A stretch of DNA of 62,662 nt, from contig JAAYEB010000260.1 in the NCBI GenBank assembly GCA_012728995.1, positions 1 through 62,662 on the forward strand, given 5' to 3'. Origin of the DNA: Fibrobacter sp. GTDB lineage: Bacteria > Fibrobacterota > Chitinivibrionia > Chitinivibrionales > Chitinispirillaceae. The first letter of the stretch is position 1; each line of letters opens with the position of its first letter. The notes beneath the pieces were generated by a model. The model saw only the letters and a program-made list of their open reading frames with translations. It was not told the origin of the DNA and ran no database searches. Shown piece by piece: positions 54,936 to 62,662 of the stretch. A program made the translations under genes and the position numbers.

Positions 54936-57041
54936 TTAACGACAAGCACTTACTGCGGTCCGACCCGAAATCACGCCATTAACCCGAATAAAAACCAGAT
55001 AGATTCCCGATACAGTCAGATACTCATTTAAATCCATTGAATATCTGCCTGACGAAACATTTTTATTTTCAATATTTTTAACCAGTTTTCCGTTTATATC
55101 AAAAATCGAACCCGAAACGTCTGAAGTTCTTTCCAAATTGCAAACAAGCCTGTTTTTTTCGATTCTCGCTTTAACCGCAAAATCAGTTCTTTTGTGCTGA
55201 CCCGTTTTTTTCACAAAAACAGGTTCCGCGTTCAACTCATACTCAAGACATCTTATTACAGGTGACGTAAGAGATGCACTATAGTCAAAAGAATCCGAGA
55301 ACAGTATCTGGTTATCAGAAACAGACAGGTTATCCACAGTAAAAGATTCATGCAGTCCGCTGCGAAATCCAACTACGCCATCATTAAATGAGTTGTCGGA
55401 ATAAGAATCAATCTCCTGCCCGTTAATCAAGCATTTATAGTTACTTTGCGAAACCTCAATCTCTACCTGGTATTTGGTTCCTGTCTGTAAATTGTAATTT
55501 GTCTCTTTGTGAACAGACCACTCTCCCCTGTTTCGAATATGAAACCGAAGAAGATCTGAATCGGCATTAAATTGCCACATATAAAAATTATCACTGTCTT
55601 TAACCCTGAAACATACACCTGCTGCTGTTTCCCTTATTTTCAGATCGAAATTCAGATTAAAACCGGTCCATTTATCAGAATTGGATTCACAGTAACCATT
55701 ACGTTCAACACCCATTACCTCCGGACCAATCAACACGTTTGATACATTTCTCCAGTTTTTAATCTCTGATAAACCCTCCTGGGCAAACACATACAAACTG
55801 CTCCTTTTTTCATCATTATCTTTAACACTTACAAGCGGTTCAGAATAATAAAACCGGTTTTCATCCTGTTTGTCCAGTATTCGCCAGTCTGAATAACCGG
55901 AATTTAATGAAGCACCGGCAATACTGATATGAGGCATAACAGCATAAACATTATCTTCAGCATCACACGCAATACCCGACCTGTTGTCCCAGATTTTTGT
56001 TTGTATACCTGTATTGCCACGATGCCACTCACCGAGTGTGTCCCTGAAATAGTGCAGTTGCATATTTTTACCGGAAACATCTTCCCTGGAAAGAACATGA
56101 ACCCTCCCCCTGGAATCAATTGTCATGCTCTCCTGATTTATAAGTCCGGTATTGGTGGGAATTGTCCAGATTTTGCATGAAGCAGTATTTTGACTTATGT
56201 ATTGTCTGCCGGATTCGGCTACTATATTTCCGTTGTTATCGTGCCATTTTTTACCATAGTCGTCACTGTAAGCGTACATAAGGTCATGATTCATTCCCCC
56301 GCTCCCGGTTTCTCTCCAGCACCAGGCTGCATGAAGCCTGTTATTATTATCAAACCGCAATCCATGAAAATAGGCCGTACATGTTCCTTCGCTATAGTCT
56401 CCCTCAATAAACTGACCCAGATTTTTCCACGTACCGTCATTATTATATTTCCATATCCTGTTATCGCTGCTTCCGCTTGTACCTGTCCTCACAATCAGGA
56501 CAAGTGTACTATCCGGTGCTGTAATAAATCTGGGGTAAGTAACATCCCTTACTGTTTCTCCATCAAGTCTGTTTGTAACATTATTAAACAGAGCCTGATT
56601 CCATTCAAAACTTTGTGGATTGGTTGCTATTCCTTCCCTGGATATCCTGTAATTAATCGGCACAGTATGATGATCAAACGAGAGGTGAATCCTTCCATCA
56701 GACGGAGAAATACCCATGGAGATAGTATTATGATTATCATTTGTATTCTGTTTATAATCACTCAGTTCAAAACTTTCCCATGTTCCTGAAGGAAGTTCTC
56801 TTCTTGCAACAGCCACATATCTGTTTGCAGAATAAAAAGCCGCATACTGATACCCATTATATGTAGTCAATGCATCTTGCTGAAATGATAAACTGTTCAT
56901 ATAAAGGTTACCGTATCTGCTGTCTGTCCACTCCAGTGCATTTTCTGTTATTATTGATTCACCTTTTTTCTCTACGGACAGTTCTCCATATGCACTGCAT
57001 AGATAAAGACATATTATGGTAAAAACGGTTGCAAATTTCAT
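54936..57041 (-). CDS. Secreted BNR-repeat (BNR_4-type) polysaccharide-active protein with C-terminal sorting-like domain
   Basis: The frame opens at 57164, but ATG 57041 has AGAGGAG 7 bases upstream and starts a signal peptide (MKFATVFTIICLYLCSAYG), so I use it (701 residues). Residues about 40-450 resemble the BNR_4 beta-propeller (NDNHNTISMGISPSDGRIHLSFDHH, GLRFDNNNRLHAAW). Some proteins with this fold are ulvan lyases of families PL24/PL25. A concanavalin/LamG-like module (about 460-600) follows, then a C-terminal domain (about 620-701; IFDINGKLVKNI, SGIYLVFIRVNG) typical of type IX secretion cargo. The substrate is not determined. Confidence 0.75.
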   Translation of the reverse strand: MKFATVFTIICLYLCSAYGELSVEKKGESIITENALEWTDSRYGNLYMNSLSFQQDALTTYNGYQYAAFYSANRYVAVARRELPSGTWESFELSDYKQNTNDNHNTISMGISPSDGRIHLSFDHHTVPINYRISREGIATNPQSFEWNQALFNNVTNRLDGETVRDVTYPRFITAPDSTLVLIVRTGTSGSSDNRIWKYNNDGTWKNLGQFIEGDYSEGTCTAYFHGLRFDNNNRLHAAWCWRETGSGGMNHDLMYAYSDDYGKKWHDNNGNIVAESGRQYISQNTASCKIWTIPTNTGLINQESMTIDSRGRVHVLSREDVSGKNMQLHYFRDTLGEWHRGNTGIQTKIWDNRSGIACDAEDNVYAVMPHISIAGASLNSGYSDWRILDKQDENRFYYSEPLVSVKDNDEKRSSLYVFAQEGLSEIKNWRNVSNVLIGPEVMGVERNGYCESNSDKWTGFNLNFDLKIRETAAGVCFRVKDSDNFYMWQFNADSDLLRFHIRNRGEWSVHKETNYNLQTGTKYQVEIEVSQSNYKCLINGQEIDSYSDNSFNDGVVGFRSGLHESFTVDNLSVSDNQILFSDSFDYSASLTSPVIRCLEYELNAEPVFVKKTGQHKRTDFAVKARIEKNRLVCNLERTSDVSGSIFDINGKLVKNIENKNVSSGRYSMDLNEYLTVSGIYLVFIRVNGVISGRTAVSACR

Positions 57042-57300
57042 AAACAACTCCTCTAAATTATCGTTCTCGGAATAATATAATCTGCGCATTATTAAAGTAT
57101 AGATTATCCGGGTCGCAGAGCGCACACGCCCCACGCGGTAGTTATTAAAAATTCGAGATATCAATACCGAAATACGAAACAGAACAAAAAATACATTTAA
57201 AAACTCATATCGGAGGACGTGTGGAAACCTGTGACTCGTACTGTTTTACACAGGAATCAGAATGCAATCAAAACCAATTAGAATGTTGATTGTTCAAAAT

Positions 57301-58410
57301 TCAATTATCAATAAAAGGTACCAACGACATATTTCCATTATTCCGTGTTTTTACGATGTAAACACCTGATGTTTTCATATTTAATCTGTTGCTGGAATTA
57401 TTATGCCTATTCGAAACAACTTTTCCATTTATAGAGTAAATGGTAATATCATTACCGTAAGAGTTGATCATCTCAGAATTAACTGTTCTTTTTGATTGTT
57501 TTTTGTTTACATTATTTTGGATACGAGGGACATGATCAGGGTCAGCCAGTTTTAGAAATGCTTTTACATACCTTTCTCCAAATTCTTTTACATCTTCACA
57601 GGAAAAATGTGCATTCCACTCATCACCGGGCCTCATAGCCAGACCTTCTGAAGATGCTAAAGCACAATTTGGATATTCTGATGCCAGTTTGTTTACCAGA
57701 GGATTGTGATCACTGCAACAGGCACCAGGTGCCTGCAACAGTTCACCAACAACGATTGGAATATCACCAAGACCCAAATCAGATTTCAAATTATCAAAAA
57801 TCTCTTTTGTTGTATCAACCCACCAGCCATTGCCATTGTCAGTTTCACCCTGATGAAAAAGTATTCCCTTTATAACACCCGTCTCTTGTGCAATACGACA
57901 CCGTTCCAGCATCCAGTCGTATACGAAACGATTCTGGTCACATAATTCCTCATGAACCCAGCAATTGTACCGCGTGAGCTTTCCAGAACCTTTTTTGAAA
58001 ATTTTTATTGATTGCCCGGAAAGGGCACATGGTATAAGTCCGATTGTAATGTCCTGCCTGATTGAATCAAGCAAAGCTCTTGCAAAATAATCTGCAGGAC
58101 CGATTCCTTCATTACAGTTATGATACGGAGGTGTTGCCGTATACCATTGATCTGCCTGTCGGCTGAAATGAACACCACATGCTTCAGATGTCTGATTGCA
58201 TGTTCTGAAAGCTAAAACCTTTATACGATCATTGGGTTCACATTCATTACCAACTACTTTTTCCTTGCAGCCACCAGCCATATTCGATTGCCCAAAGAGC
58301 AAATAACAATGAAAATTTGAATCTACATCAGCATAAACCTGCGATAATATTGAAAGCACAATAAAAGCAAAACTGATTTTAATCCTGTTTTTTTTATGTA
58401 TTTTATCCAT
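57301..58410 (-). CDS. Secreted SASA/CE6-type carbohydrate acetyl esterase
   Basis: 369 residues. Signal peptide (about 8-27). The esterase domain has the Ser motif YLLFGQSNMAGGC, then LIPCALSGQSIKIF, GILFHQGETDNG and WNAHFSCEDVKEFGERY, which supplies the likely catalytic His. This is the SASA domain of carbohydrate esterase family 6 and sialate O-acetylesterases. A short C-terminal tail (IYSINGKVVS, MKTSGVYIVKTRNNG) resembles a type IX sorting domain. It probably removes acetyl groups from plant or algal polysaccharide outside the cell. The BNR-type gene follows 259 bases downstream. Confidence 0.82.
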   Translation of the reverse strand: MDKIHKKNRIKISFAFIVLSILSQVYADVDSNFHCYLLFGQSNMAGGCKEKVVGNECEPNDRIKVLAFRTCNQTSEACGVHFSRQADQWYTATPPYHNCNEGIGPADYFARALLDSIRQDITIGLIPCALSGQSIKIFKKGSGKLTRYNCWVHEELCDQNRFVYDWMLERCRIAQETGVIKGILFHQGETDNGNGWWVDTTKEIFDNLKSDLGLGDIPIVVGELLQAPGACCSDHNPLVNKLASEYPNCALASSEGLAMRPGDEWNAHFSCEDVKEFGERYVKAFLKLADPDHVPRIQNNVNKKQSKRTVNSEMINSYGNDITIYSINGKVVSNRHNNSSNRLNMKTSGVYIVKTRNNGNMSLVPFIDN

Positions 58411-58494: not shown

Positions 58495-59583
58495 TTACCC
58501 TATTATTTCTACTTTCGCAGTGTTTTTCATTGAAATAAACCATATGGTTAGTTCTTCAAGATCTACACCTGCATCGATAATATCAAACAGCAATGAAGAA
58601 AGTAAAAAAGATACTTTTCCTGAAAAAACTGGAACACCATTTTTTTCTTCAGGCTTTGCAATTACCGGTAATGACATTTCCTTGAATAAAACAAATACAC
58701 GGTCTTTATTGAATACCGCTATTCCAACAGGCAGAGACGCAAAAGCATCATCCCCATCAGGAGTTTTGGGCAGTTCTTCTGCGAATAAAAATCTTTTTAG
58801 ACCTGCGATACTATAATCAACAGTTAACCTGTAATCTGTTTCGTTTTCTTTTGTTTTAGAAACTTCGAATTTCTGTTTTTCATTATCAGATTCGGTCAAC
58901 TCATGATGCTTTATTTTTAGTTCTGTATATACATTTTTGAAAGGCAAAGGCATATTTTCGTTGTTTAACTGTTCAATCTGTTTTTTATAATTATCTATAT
59001 CTTCCTTTTCACTCCCGGGGATTATCTCAACAACCTGATTATTGGATATCTCTGGTCCACATAAGAGCATTACATTATGTTTTCCAGGTAGTGTTCCTAA
59101 AGAAAGTTTTTTATGTAAATCAATTGTTAAAACTCTACTTGAAAATCCTGGTGGGTGTTTTCGTGTATCCTTAATAACAGGTGAATCTGCCAATTTAATT
59201 ATTTCGATTTTTCCTGTTTCCAGATAAACATGAACCAAGTATGTTGTTGTCTTTAGTGAATGTATAACAAACTTACTGGTTTCAGCAGTATGTAAGCAAA
59301 TCATCGGAACAGATTGATGCTTATCAAGAAAAACTTTCTCTGGAGCATCAACAAGAAAACCATCAATACAATTAATCATCCTTTCATATTTTTTATCACT
59401 TATCATAAACTCAGGATCATCCCAATATTGTTCATTTTTTAAAGGTAATGTATGCATTGTTTCCTTTATACCTTTCTCTGAACTATTATTATCGGGAACA
59501 CATGAGTTAAAACAGATCTCAATTAAAATAACTGGATACAGTAGCTTGACATTACTTATTAACCTGCAATTATTTAGAATCAT
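58495..59583 (-). CDS. Unknown protein with N-terminal hydrophobic segment; paralogue of the upstream gene product
   Basis: 362 residues. A hydrophobic stretch (about 13-27, LLYPVILIEICF) ends in FNSC, a poor lipobox, so it is a possible lipoprotein or signal peptide. From about residue 75 it aligns by eye with the 321-residue neighbour: YLVHVYLETGKIEI vs YVLLTHLETNNLYL, NVMLLCGPEISN vs QIQLICGKVISN, and matching C-terminal ends. No known domain recognised. It is the last gene of the operon that begins beyond the right edge, 62 bases after its paralogue. Confidence 0.7.
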   Translation of the reverse strand: MILNNCRLISNVKLLYPVILIEICFNSCVPDNNSSEKGIKETMHTLPLKNEQYWDDPEFMISDKKYERMINCIDGFLVDAPEKVFLDKHQSVPMICLHTAETSKFVIHSLKTTTYLVHVYLETGKIEIIKLADSPVIKDTRKHPPGFSSRVLTIDLHKKLSLGTLPGKHNVMLLCGPEISNNQVVEIIPGSEKEDIDNYKKQIEQLNNENMPLPFKNVYTELKIKHHELTESDNEKQKFEVSKTKENETDYRLTVDYSIAGLKRFLFAEELPKTPDGDDAFASLPVGIAVFNKDRVFVLFKEMSLPVIAKPEEKNGVPVFSGKVSFLLSSLLFDIIDAGVDLEELTIWFISMKNTAKVEIIG

Positions 59584-59645: not shown

Positions 59646-60611
59646 TTAATATTCTTTTATTTCGAGTATATTACTTGACACCGAGCCGGTTACGGCAAGT
59701 ATTACAATTTTTTCAGGAATAATATCGGTAGACATATTTTTATGAATATACTCCAATAGATCAAATGCGAAATAACCTCTAAAAGAGTTTTTATCATTTT
59801 CAGCCAGTTCAAGTGGTATTATTATTTTTTCTTTCATTATGCCACCATTACATATTTGAACTATAACATTTAAAACTATTGGTATATCCACTAAACTTTC
59901 GGGTAATTGAATATTATAGCTTCCATTAATAACAAAGCTGTTATCATTTTTTGATATACTGTTTTTTTCCGGTTTAATTTCAATATTATCTTTATCAGGA
60001 GGTAGTTTAGGAGAAAGTTCTCGCTTTGTAAAAAGTTCTTTATCTTCTTCAGAAAGACTTAAATTTTTAACTTCTAATTCTTTTTTCAGTTCGTTAATGT
60101 AATTATCTTTTTCATAAAGACCAGATACATTGAATTTATGTCCATTTGAAATTACTTTTCCACAGATCAATTGTATCTGGTAATTTCCATCTGTTTTTTG
60201 CACCTTTTTAAAGTCTATATTCTGCCATAAATGCTCGTATGTAAATGACAGTCTTACGTTTTTTTCTTCCGATGTAGTGTTTTTCTTCTCTACAACATAA
60301 GGAGAAGGTATTTTATCAGGATTTTCAAAAAGAGGAAACAAATACAGGTTATTAGTTTCCAAATGAGTTAGAAGTACATATGCATCTTCAGGAGGAATAA
60401 ATTCAGCATTATCATGCGTATTAGTTTTCCAGATACAAAAAAAGGGATACCTGGTTTCTTTCTCTGCGTCAAATTCCATCGGTCCTATTACTGCTGAACC
60501 ATATCGTTCATCGATTTCAGTTACCTGTTGATATATTTTGTCAAATATATCCGGTTTGTGATAAAACGAACTGTCTGGCAAACCCAGCGCGTACAGAATC
60601 ATTTCAAGCAT
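59646..60611 (-). CDS. Unknown soluble protein; paralogue of the downstream gene product
   Basis: 321 residues from ATG 60611 with AGGGG about 5 bases upstream. No signal peptide or membrane segment. The middle holds a charged helical linker (YINELKKELEVKNLSLSEEDKELF). The C-terminal part is beta-rich (IIIPLELAENDKNSFRGYFAFDLLEYI; KIVILAVTGSVSSNILEI), equivalent to the same part of the 362-residue neighbour. It starts 12 bases after the metallopeptidase-like gene, so it is co-transcribed with it. Candidate roles are chaperone, adaptor or immunity partner of that protein (inference). Confidence 0.7.
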   Translation of the reverse strand: MLEMILYALGLPDSSFYHKPDIFDKIYQQVTEIDERYGSAVIGPMEFDAEKETRYPFFCIWKTNTHDNAEFIPPEDAYVLLTHLETNNLYLFPLFENPDKIPSPYVVEKKNTTSEEKNVRLSFTYEHLWQNIDFKKVQKTDGNYQIQLICGKVISNGHKFNVSGLYEKDNYINELKKELEVKNLSLSEEDKELFTKRELSPKLPPDKDNIEIKPEKNSISKNDNSFVINGSYNIQLPESLVDIPIVLNVIVQICNGGIMKEKIIIPLELAENDKNSFRGYFAFDLLEYIHKNMSTDIIPEKIVILAVTGSVSSNILEIKEY

Positions 60612-60623
60612 TTTTACCCCTAT

Positions 60624-62662
60624 CTATAGTTTTAATAAACTTTGAGCATTAATAAAAGGTCTACACTGATCACAATATACTAATTCACAATTAAAATTCA
60701 GTTGATGAAACATGATACATCTTCCATCAACATATTTACTTTTTGTTGACAACTTTTTATCAACTTTGTAAGAACAATGACTTCCAGATCCACCCATACC
60801 TATATATCTATAAGTGTGATCATTATATTTAAACTCTGGCGGGCAGTTATATATCCCTTTGTATGGAACCATATTCATCAAATGACCCAATTCATGCATT
60901 ACACATTGACTATGAATAGTATCGTTTTTATCAATAACAACCAGGTTATGAGGAGATACACTTCCATCCCCTCCCCATGGACCTGACGCTGCTGTGAGTA
61001 TGAAATCAACTCTTACTGGATTTTCTTTTGACGGAATAGCTTTTGATGGGAGTTTTATTTCTATATTATCCTCATCAATACAAGTAACTAAACCTGTTAC
61101 ATCATCAATTTCAGTATTATCATCAGTTAGGTTTCCGCTTGTTTTTTTATTAATGTTTTTCCATTTACCTTTTATTAAAAATTTGGCCCCTTTTTGGAGC
61201 GGTGGATTAAATATTTTTACAAGATTTTTACTTACCTTAATTTTATCGTTTTTCGATTCAAGTATTTCTGTCTTTGTGATAGTGATATTTTTACCACTAC
61301 TATCTAACCCATCGAACTGTTTATCACATAATATAATATGACAACACTTATTTTTGTTTTTCGATGATAATAATTTGTGGTACTCACTTTGATTATGATT
61401 CCCAACAATAACATTGCCTGCATTATTTATAGAATGCATATTTGGTTTTTCTGCAATAAACTCTATAAAAACATCATGTAAATTATTTTTTACAGTTTTC
61501 ATTGGTGGTGGTATAGCATCTTTGTGATATGTCAATTGGTACCACAACTTCCTCCAGTTCTCCACCACAAACTTACTCCTAAAATTTTCTCCATCAGTTC
61601 CAGCTTCAACTGTAAATCTATCGCCACCGGCAAGACCGCATGCTAAAACTATTGATGACTCATTACCGGTGAATTCAGTATCAATTGTTGCAATTCTTTC
61701 TTTGAATTCAACAAGCTTGCCTCCTGTTTTTTTCATTATACCTGGTTTTGGACTGTTACGTTTACTGTTACCATCCTCTGCCGTTATACGCCAAAACACT
61801 TTCTTTCCATCTGTTTTTGCATTTGGATCTTTTGACCTAACTTTTATTGTCAGCTCTGTTCCCTGCTCTTTTCCATTTGAAGAAAGATTTACATACTGTT
61901 TATGAGGTTTTGAACTGTCAAAAACCTGTGGATAAACCCATTCAAGAATTATTGTCTCACTGTTCTCTGCTTTTACCTGCTTTGAAAAAACCGGTTTCTT
62001 TTCCGTAATCCTCTTGTCATAAATTACTGCTTCACTTTTCTTAACCTTCTTTTTATTTTCAGGCTTAATAAGCTCAGGAGCTTTACCCTTGTCGAAAAAC
62101 ACGATCTCGACCCTGCGGTTTTCACGAGACCGATAATCGTCTTTTCCTTTTTCATCAATCGGAAAACTCTCACCACACGGATATATACCATCATGCTTAG
62201 AACTGTAAACAAGCTGCGCCGGTTCACTTCCTGTCTCACTTTTCACACTTTCAACAAGAAGATCCCTGATTACCTCAAATAAAGCACTCCAGGTGTTTTG
62301 CCCCATCACACCATCCTGCTTAAGCGATCCATTAAATCGATTATTGTACTCACCCTGGAATGCGTTAACCGCTTGTTCTGTTTTCGGTCCGTTTGTGTTG
62401 TCTACTGCACCGGGATCAGTTGCCCATCCGTGATTATAAAGCGATTTCAGTATCTGCTGGTAATCTTCAATCTTTGATGCCAGTTCAACTATGTCAAGCC
62501 AGGCATCTTTTTTGTTATCGAGAACAGCTTTTATTCCTTCCGCGCGCCATTGTGAAAGGTCGTAGTTATACTCCGGATCACCACTTGTATCACTGTGCCC
62601 AAAAAGCAGTATCTCTTTATCACTGTTTTCTTTTGCAAATTTGAATACAGAACAAAGAGAAC
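60624..62662 (-). CDS. OmpA-like protein with nested peptidoglycan-binding fold and HExxH metallopeptidase-like C-terminus (partial)
   Basis: The frame stays open to the right edge, so the start is outside (at least 678 residues; GTG/ATG at 62309 are internal). First visible is an OmpA-type half (ILLFGHSDTSG, DLSQWRAEGI), then a peptidoglycan-binding-like insert (LKSLYNHGWATDPGAVDN, GPKTEQAVNAFQ, GVMGQNTWSAL), then the OmpA remainder ending RSRENRRVEIVFF. About 150 beta-rich residues and a C-terminal zinc-peptidase-like domain follow: HSQCVMHELGHLMNM (HExxH), GMGGSGSHCSYK and a closing Cys/His-rich block (CIMFHQLNFNCELVYCDQC). A wall-directed or injected hydrolase is plausible. It heads an operon with two paralogous unknowns. 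Confidence 0.75.
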   Translation of the reverse strand, partial: SLCSVFKFAKENSDKEILLFGHSDTSGDPEYNYDLSQWRAEGIKAVLDNKKDAWLDIVELASKIEDYQQILKSLYNHGWATDPGAVDNTNGPKTEQAVNAFQGEYNNRFNGSLKQDGVMGQNTWSALFEVIRDLLVESVKSETGSEPAQLVYSSKHDGIYPCGESFPIDEKGKDDYRSRENRRVEIVFFDKGKAPELIKPENKKKVKKSEAVIYDKRITEKKPVFSKQVKAENSETIILEWVYPQVFDSSKPHKQYVNLSSNGKEQGTELTIKVRSKDPNAKTDGKKVFWRITAEDGNSKRNSPKPGIMKKTGGKLVEFKERIATIDTEFTGNESSIVLACGLAGGDRFTVEAGTDGENFRSKFVVENWRKLWYQLTYHKDAIPPPMKTVKNNLHDVFIEFIAEKPNMHSINNAGNVIVGNHNQSEYHKLLSSKNKNKCCHIILCDKQFDGLDSSGKNITITKTEILESKNDKIKVSKNLVKIFNPPLQKGAKFLIKGKWKNINKKTSGNLTDDNTEIDDVTGLVTCIDEDNIEIKLPSKAIPSKENPVRVDFILTAASGPWGGDGSVSPHNLVVIDKNDTIHSQCVMHELGHLMNMVPYKGIYNCPPEFKYNDHTYRYIGMGGSGSHCSYKVDKKLSTKSKYVDGRCIMFHQLNFNCELVYCDQCRPFINAQSLLKL

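What the first reader, a model, noticed from the sequence alone, without database searches (positions are those of the whole stretch)
60624..62662. Peptidoglycan-binding fold nested inside an OmpA-like domain and fused to an HExxH domain
The visible N-terminal part shows the first half of an OmpA peptidoglycan-binding domain (GHSDTSG, LSQWRA), then a complete PG_binding_1-like module, and only then the OmpA end (RSRENRRVEI). A beta-rich middle and a HELGH-containing C-terminus follow. Two wall-binding folds plus a metallopeptidase signature in one chain suggest a secreted or injected enzyme acting at the cell wall. The motifs are seen; the nesting is my reading; the function is inference.
Basis: partly seen in the sequence, partly recalled or inferred. 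Interest (0 to 1): 0.72.

Follow-up and report, generated by a model that had tools for sequence, protein, structure and literature searches.

The report
Nested wall-binding domain on T6SS toxins
The truncated gene at the end of this contig most likely encodes a bacterial weapon, a zinc-protease toxin carried on a split wall-binding domain and injected by a type VI secretion system, and its relatives show that the same carrier holds many different toxins in a bacterial phylum where such weapons are little studied.

Summary
On the minus strand, ORF 60624-62660 (678 aa, 5' end cut by the contig edge) reads OmpA front half, PG_binding_1, OmpA back half, beta-rich linker, HELGH domain. A model of uninterrupted OmpA domains matches it in two pieces on either side of the PG_binding_1 module. 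The OmpA peptidoglycan triad (Asp/Asn/Arg) is kept in 47-49 of 49 related modules.

What it is: a polymorphic type VI secretion (T6SS) effector. All 19 Fibrobacterota genomes with a full nested module carry TssC (50 of 168 overall). Two relatives are fused to Hcp, others sit in vgrG-PAAR operons, none has a signal peptide, and the same carrier bears Tle1-like, phospholipase D, Het-C, subtilase and arginine-deiminase C-termini (25 C-terminal clusters among 44 proteins). The two genes downstream are paralogous immunity candidates, one a putative lipoprotein.

The window's own C-terminus is zincin-like, with invariant HExxH, GxHC, CxM and CxxC. It resembles VgrG2b in kind, but no membership was found. 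Its fold and third zinc ligand are untested (poor model).

I found no description of the nested carrier. T6SS delivery is inferred from genomics; nothing is shown experimentally.

The parts
60624..62660 (-). effector ORF, 678 aa visible, 5' end cut off by the contig edge
   Evidence: no start codon before the edge
62511..62654 (-). OmpA front half (GHSDTSG...N..LSQWRA); peptidoglycan triad D24, N32, R39
   Evidence: PF00691 E=7e-6; D 48/49, N 47/49, R 49/49; same residues and spacing (8, 7) as PorE D576/N584/R591
62280..62471 (-). PG_binding_1 module inserted in the OmpA domain
   Evidence: PF01471 E=4.1e-8; helical insert in both models
62088..62186 (-). OmpA back half (CGESFPI...NRRVEI)
   Evidence: uninterrupted-OmpA HMM match at aa 163-191; C162 47/49, R183 49/49
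61563..61898 (-). beta-rich, probably Ig-like linker (KQYVNLSSNGKEQGTELTIKVR...CGLAGGDRFTVEAG)
   Evidence: strands in a low-confidence model; 88.6% DNA identity to paralog C123 over 61530-62075, ending at the peptidase start
60627..61568 (-). C-terminal zincin-like domain (putative toxin)
   Evidence: 13 Fibrobacterota homologs, HExxH invariant
60882..60896 (-). HELGH, aa 589-593
60774..60779 (-). H628-C629 of the invariant GxHC motif; candidate third zinc ligand (inference)
60663..60719 (-). C648xM ... C663xxC666, invariant cysteines (second metal site or disulfides, inference)
59646..60611 (-). immunity candidate 2, no clear signal peptide; 12 bp after the effector
58495..59583 (-). immunity candidate 1, putative lipoprotein, remote paralog of candidate 2
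   Evidence: hydrophobic N-terminus with FNSC; hhalign probability 98% to candidate 2 family

Best explanation
The gene is the visible part of a polymorphic antibacterial T6SS effector. It is made in the cytoplasm without a signal peptide and loaded on the T6SS through its N-terminal part: relatives are fused to Hcp or encoded directly behind VgrG and PAAR. It is fired into a neighbouring cell. The carrier is an OmpA domain with a PG_binding_1 domain inserted between its second helix and third strand, and it keeps the residues with which OmpA domains hold peptidoglycan, so it probably docks the toxin on the spike, on the prey's wall, or both. The C-terminal zinc peptidase then cuts an unknown protein of the prey envelope, while the downstream partners, one of them lipoprotein-like, protect the producer. 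Shown by computation: nesting, motif conservation, polymorphic C-termini, T6SS linkage, partner genes. Inferred: secretion, wall binding, peptidase activity, immunity.
For: T6SS in the same genome: TssC E=7e-131 with TssA, TssB and Hcp, VgrG plus DUF2169. All 19 Fibrobacterota genomes with a full nested module are TssC-positive against 50/168 overall (P=6e-12 naive; 13 of 13 genera against 24/41, P=1e-4). Hcp fusions: L060 (TIGR03344 E=7e-8; BLASTP 1e-15 to the own Hcp) and L104 (PF05638 above cut-off). Operons: VgrG-PAAR-effector in L114 and L127; VgrG-effector-partner-PAAR in L109; VgrG-LysM-nested module-DUF4280 in Zixiibacteriota L020. Toxin C-termini: Tle1-like 6e-24, PLD 2e-8, Het-C 3e-38, S8 1e-12, PAD 2e-94; 25 C-terminal clusters in 44 proteins. 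0 of 48 nested proteins have a hydrophobic N-terminus, most partners do. DNA identity to paralog C123 stops at the peptidase boundary. OmpA triad conserved.
Against: No T6SS gene lies in this contig next to the gene, and the missing N-terminus cannot be read. Only 7 of 51 nested loci have a recognisable VgrG or Hcp in the stretch fetched. Co-occurrence is confounded by phylogeny and genome size. The catalytic domain has no Pfam family; its best solved relatives are weak (myroilysin, E=6e-4, around HExxH only). The structure of that domain was not obtained.
Confidence: 0.85

Rival explanations
1. A Sec- or T9SS-exported enzyme anchored to the producer's own wall by its OmpA and PG_binding_1 domains, for wall remodelling or nutrient use.
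For: Both domains are classical wall binders, and neighbouring genes in the window encode carbohydrate enzymes with weak T9SS-type tail matches.
Against: No signal peptide in 48 relatives; Hcp fusions and vgrG-PAAR operons; known T6SS toxin C-termini; immunity-like partners.
Confidence: 0.06
2. An effector of an extracellular contractile injection system (eCIS) rather than the T6SS.
For: LysM and DUF4280 neighbours in L020 may also belong to eCIS (LysM protein is an eCIS core component, PMC10673891); OmpA domains have been reported on toxins of the PVC type of eCIS (PMC3482391).
Against: All 19 genomes with the module have TssC; fusion partners are T6SS Hcp; eCIS genes were not searched.
Confidence: 0.06
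3. The nested module is only a structural spacer or a dead relic, and the wall-binding residues have no role.
For: Variable insert lengths and a missing PG_binding_1 Pfam hit in some members (L127, L129).
Against: D/N/R triad kept in 47-49 of 49 modules over wide divergence.
Confidence: 0.15
4. The two OmpA halves do not form one fold; PG_binding_1 merely lies between a partial OmpA and an unrelated NRRVEI tail.
For: Pfam matches only the front half of OmpA; the strand-pairing argument is indirect, since coordinates could not be inspected.
Against: Two-piece match of an uninterrupted OmpA HMM in 34 of 49 proteins; both models show long strands of matching length on both sides of the insert (E53-60/E224-231 in L016, E15-21/E184-190 in the window); Foldseek hits are OmpA/Pal domains.
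Confidence: 0.07

Closest known systems
Polymorphic T6SS cargo effectors with N-terminal delivery domains (MIX, FIX, RIX, PIX, WHIX; PMC12135965)
   Same: Shared N-terminal carrier, many exchangeable C-terminal toxins, partner immunity genes; WHIX can carry toxins on both sides, as L119 seems to
   Different: The carrier here is a nested OmpA[PG_binding_1] domain, found outside Proteobacteria; secretion sufficiency untested; relation to those domains not tested
VgrG2b C-terminal metallopeptidase (Pseudomonas aeruginosa, PMC6899460)
   Same: T6SS-linked HExxH toxin with envelope-exported immunity protein
   Different: No sequence match to that solved domain; VgrG2b uses Glu as third ligand, whereas here an invariant His in GxHC is the candidate; VgrG2b is a VgrG fusion
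LysM and PG_binding_1 loading domains at vgrG loci (PMC10673891)
   Same: Wall-binding domains used next to VgrG, alone or fused to the toxin's N-terminus; LysM shown there to bridge VgrG and toxin
   Different: That survey reported PG_binding_1 only in gammaproteobacteria; its main text does not mention OmpA
Hcp with extended toxin (Hcp-ET)
   Same: L060 and L104 are Hcp fused to a long C-terminal extension
   Different: The extension contains the OmpA[PG_binding_1] carrier; the window's own N-terminus is unknown
Canonical OmpA-like domains (Pal, TagL, PorE)
   Same: GHxD...N..LS..RA and NRRVEI, same peptidoglycan triad
   Different: Interrupted by a PG_binding_1 domain of about 100 residues; part of an effector, not of the cell's own envelope

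Membership tests
OmpA-like peptidoglycan-binding domain (PF00691) | front half GHxDxxG...N..LS..RA | tested here: met
   Pfam score 26.7 against a cut-off of 27.2 for the truncated window copy, above the cut-off in several paralogs
OmpA-like peptidoglycan-binding domain (PF00691) | back half GxGExxP...NRRVEI | tested here: met
   two-piece HMM match; conservation
OmpA-like peptidoglycan-binding domain (PF00691) | one closed fold | tested here: inconclusive
   strands on both sides of the insert in two models; coordinates not inspectable; beta-1 poorly modelled or absent
OmpA-like peptidoglycan-binding domain (PF00691) | Asp/Asn/Arg peptidoglycan-binding triad | tested here: met
   D24, N32, R39; spacing as in PorE
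PG_binding_1 (PF01471) | match above the curated cut-off | tested here: met
   33.7 bits against 23
T6SS polymorphic effector | shared N-terminal carrier with exchangeable C-terminal toxins | tested here: met
   25 C-terminal clusters in 44 proteins, known toxin domains
T6SS polymorphic effector | linked to or fused with Hcp, VgrG or PAAR | tested here: met
   met for relatives; not visible for the window gene itself
T6SS polymorphic effector | T6SS in the same genome | tested here: met
T6SS polymorphic effector | T6SS-dependent secretion and killing | not testable with these tools
   needs an experiment
VgrG2b-type metallopeptidase | sequence homology to the solved VgrG2b domain | tested here: not met
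   no hit in the PDB at E<=10 with A2, none to VgrG2b with A5; that the solved domain is in this PDB copy was not checked separately
VgrG2b-type metallopeptidase | HExxH with Glu as third ligand | tested here: inconclusive
   no invariant Glu after HExxH; invariant His628 instead
Metzincins (M12) | HExxHxxGxxH | tested here: not met
   position +10 is Pro in the window; only weak local similarity
MIX, FIX, RIX, PIX, WHIX | the respective domain | not tested
   no models on hand

The most novel reading that the evidence does not exclude
Nested OmpA[PG_binding_1] is a new class of T6SS delivery domain, centred on Fibrobacterota but present in other non-proteobacterial phyla. It both loads effectors and fixes the injected toxin to the prey's peptidoglycan, so that diverse toxins, including an arginine deiminase, are held in the periplasm.
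Probability: 0.4. Interest if true: 0.75.

Novelty: new variant of a known kind. Interest (0 to 1): 0.62.

Why it matters
A large T6SS effector survey notes that its genomes were virtually all Proteobacteria (PMC11148199). A carrier domain that can be recognised by sequence would open the effector repertoire of Fibrobacterota and others to direct listing, as MIX and WHIX did. It also raises a testable question: why would a delivered toxin keep an intact peptidoglycan-binding site? It shows one domain inserted into another to make a composite wall-binding module, and it links an uncharacterised zincin-like family to interbacterial competition.

Tried and rejected
Plasmid searches with the peptidase (two members) and with the module: no match. 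Viral contigs with the peptidase: none; with the module: only short matches to the OmpA front half. PDB search with three peptidases: none; with thirteen: weak metzincin hits around HExxH only. Structure of the whole window protein: C-terminus below pLDDT 50, so no zinc site could be read and no fold search was made. A strict regular-expression test of the nested order caught only 22 of 49 and was replaced by the HMM test. Rejected: secreted wall enzyme; membership of the VgrG2b or metzincin families.

Full report
What is there. The finding lies on the minus strand of a contig that ends inside the gene. The readable part, 678 aa, contains an OmpA front half, a PG_binding_1 domain (E=4.1e-8) and an OmpA back half ending NRRVEI, then a beta-rich stretch and a HELGH domain. 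The contig edge removes the first OmpA strand and everything before it. Contigs of two paralogs, C474 and C409, also end inside the same module, C474 at the very same sequence, which suggests the assembly broke on a repeated carrier module. The paralog on C409 (about 90% identical in DNA) shows the kind of start such genes have: about 120 aa of other sequence, an Ig-like stretch, then OmpA. It is a different copy and was not joined.

Nesting. Across eight modules from several phyla, the columns invariant on both sides of PG_binding_1 are those of OmpA. In 49 modules the Asp, Asn and Arg that bind peptidoglycan in PorE and other OmpA domains (PMC7192894) are kept in 48, 47 and 49, with the same spacing; behind the insert, Cys162 is kept in 47 and Arg183 in 49. 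An HMM from five uninterrupted OmpA domains matches the window protein in two pieces that flank the insert, and does so for 34 of 49 proteins. AlphaFold of the intact module of the named Chitinispirillaceae relative L016 (pLDDT 76.5, pTM 0.77) gives strands E53-60 and E224-231 with a helical insert between. The 50 structures listed for it are almost all OmpA-like domains (Pal, OprF, TagL, PorE and others), though with E-values above 0.01, as would be expected if the insert limits the alignment. The window protein gives E15-21 and E184-190. DSSP calls a strand only when it is hydrogen-bonded to another, and no other long strand exists in the module, so the halves probably pair; this is an inference, since coordinates could not be inspected.

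T6SS. The genome has TssA, TssB, TssC, Hcp, VgrG and DUF2169. Of 168 Fibrobacterota genomes, 50 have TssC; all 19 with a full-length nested module are among them (P=6e-12 if genomes were independent, 1e-4 by genus). Relatives L060 and L104 begin with an Hcp domain. In L127 and L114 the order is VgrG, PAAR, nested protein; in L109 it is VgrG, nested protein, lipoprotein-like gene, PAAR. In Zixiibacteriota L020 two nested modules follow VgrG, together with LysM and DUF4280 proteins. None of 48 nested proteins has a hydrophobic N-terminus (a few of these ORFs are 5'-open or have uncertain starts).

Polymorphic toxins. 44 nested proteins fall into 25 C-terminal clusters. Recognisable C-termini are Tle1-like phospholipase, phospholipase D, Het-C, subtilase, calcineurin-like phosphoesterase, C39-like peptidase and protein-arginine deiminase. 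Window and paralog C123 are 88.6% identical in DNA over 61530-62075, up to the peptidase boundary, while their peptidase domains are 32% identical in protein, the mark of a swapped or fast-evolving tip. Orphan pieces of the peptidase lie in other loci, some downstream of effectors.

The peptidase. The domain occurs in 10 of 168 Fibrobacterota genomes, all TssC-positive. In homologs as low as 19-23% identical, HExxH, GxHC, CxM, CxxC and an Ala are invariant. It has no Pfam family; the nearest solved proteins are metzincins around HExxH only, and the metzincin third His is replaced by Pro in the window. His628 is the best candidate for the third ligand, and the four cysteines may hold a second metal or form disulfides; both are inference. 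VgrG2b is the closest analogue by role (PMC6899460), not by detectable sequence.

Partners. The two genes after the effector (59646-60611, 58495-59583) belong to families that follow most peptidase effectors; they are remote paralogs (hhalign 98%). One family usually carries a signal or lipobox, the other does not. The immunity role is inferred from position and from the periplasmic immunity protein of VgrG2b.

What is new. LysM and PG_binding_1 domains are reported as candidate effector-loading domains at vgrG loci, PG_binding_1 only in gammaproteobacteria (PMC10673891), and MIX, RIX, PIX and WHIX define classes of polymorphic T6SS effectors (PMC12135965). None of the papers searched describes OmpA with an inserted PG_binding_1 as such a carrier; the library is incomplete and has no preprints, so absence there is not proof.

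Noticed in passing
L113:182-2827 (+), genome G019: Nested OmpA[PG_binding_1] fused to a full protein-arginine deiminase (PAD E=1.6e-94, PAD_M 1.5e-19) with motifs QDVMEIG, GHVDE and HCGTN present (catalytic in PADs, from memory), followed by a 284-aa gene with a lipobox-like LTGQC: a candidate T6SS arginine-deiminase effector with immunity gene.
   Followed up: partly
L119:5834-10447 (+): Zinc-dependent phospholipase C at the N-terminus, OmpA in the middle and a C39-like peptidase at the C-terminus: possibly a two-toxin effector.
   Followed up: partly
L016:6633-10868 (+): Two nested OmpA[PG_binding_1] modules in tandem in one 1411-aa protein.
   Followed up: partly
L060:3697-4050 (-), L064:7065-7421 (+), L069:7665-8006 (+): Short orphan pieces of the peptidase domain, the one in L060 next to an immunity-like gene, as expected of displaced toxin tips.
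   Followed up: partly
window 59646-60611 and 58495-59583, and their relatives: Two paralogous partner families, one with and one without an export signal, next to the same effectors; the role of the signal-less one is unexplained.
   Followed up: partly
L012:2815-6263 (+), own contig C154: A stand-alone nested module ending in a carboxypeptidase-regulatory-like domain, followed by a 770-aa protein without a significant Pfam match.
   Followed up: no
L061:1714-3969 (-): A 751-aa protein that by eye combines a wall-endopeptidase-like start with a PG_binding motif, near another effector's N-terminal pieces.
   Followed up: no
window 54936-58410: BNR_4 and SASA carbohydrate enzymes with weak Por secretion-tail matches (below cut-off), possibly T9SS cargo.
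   Followed up: no
L013 near 7900 (contig C474): A frameshift in the OmpA region of the closest paralog, which may be a real defect or an assembly error; not mended.
   Followed up: no
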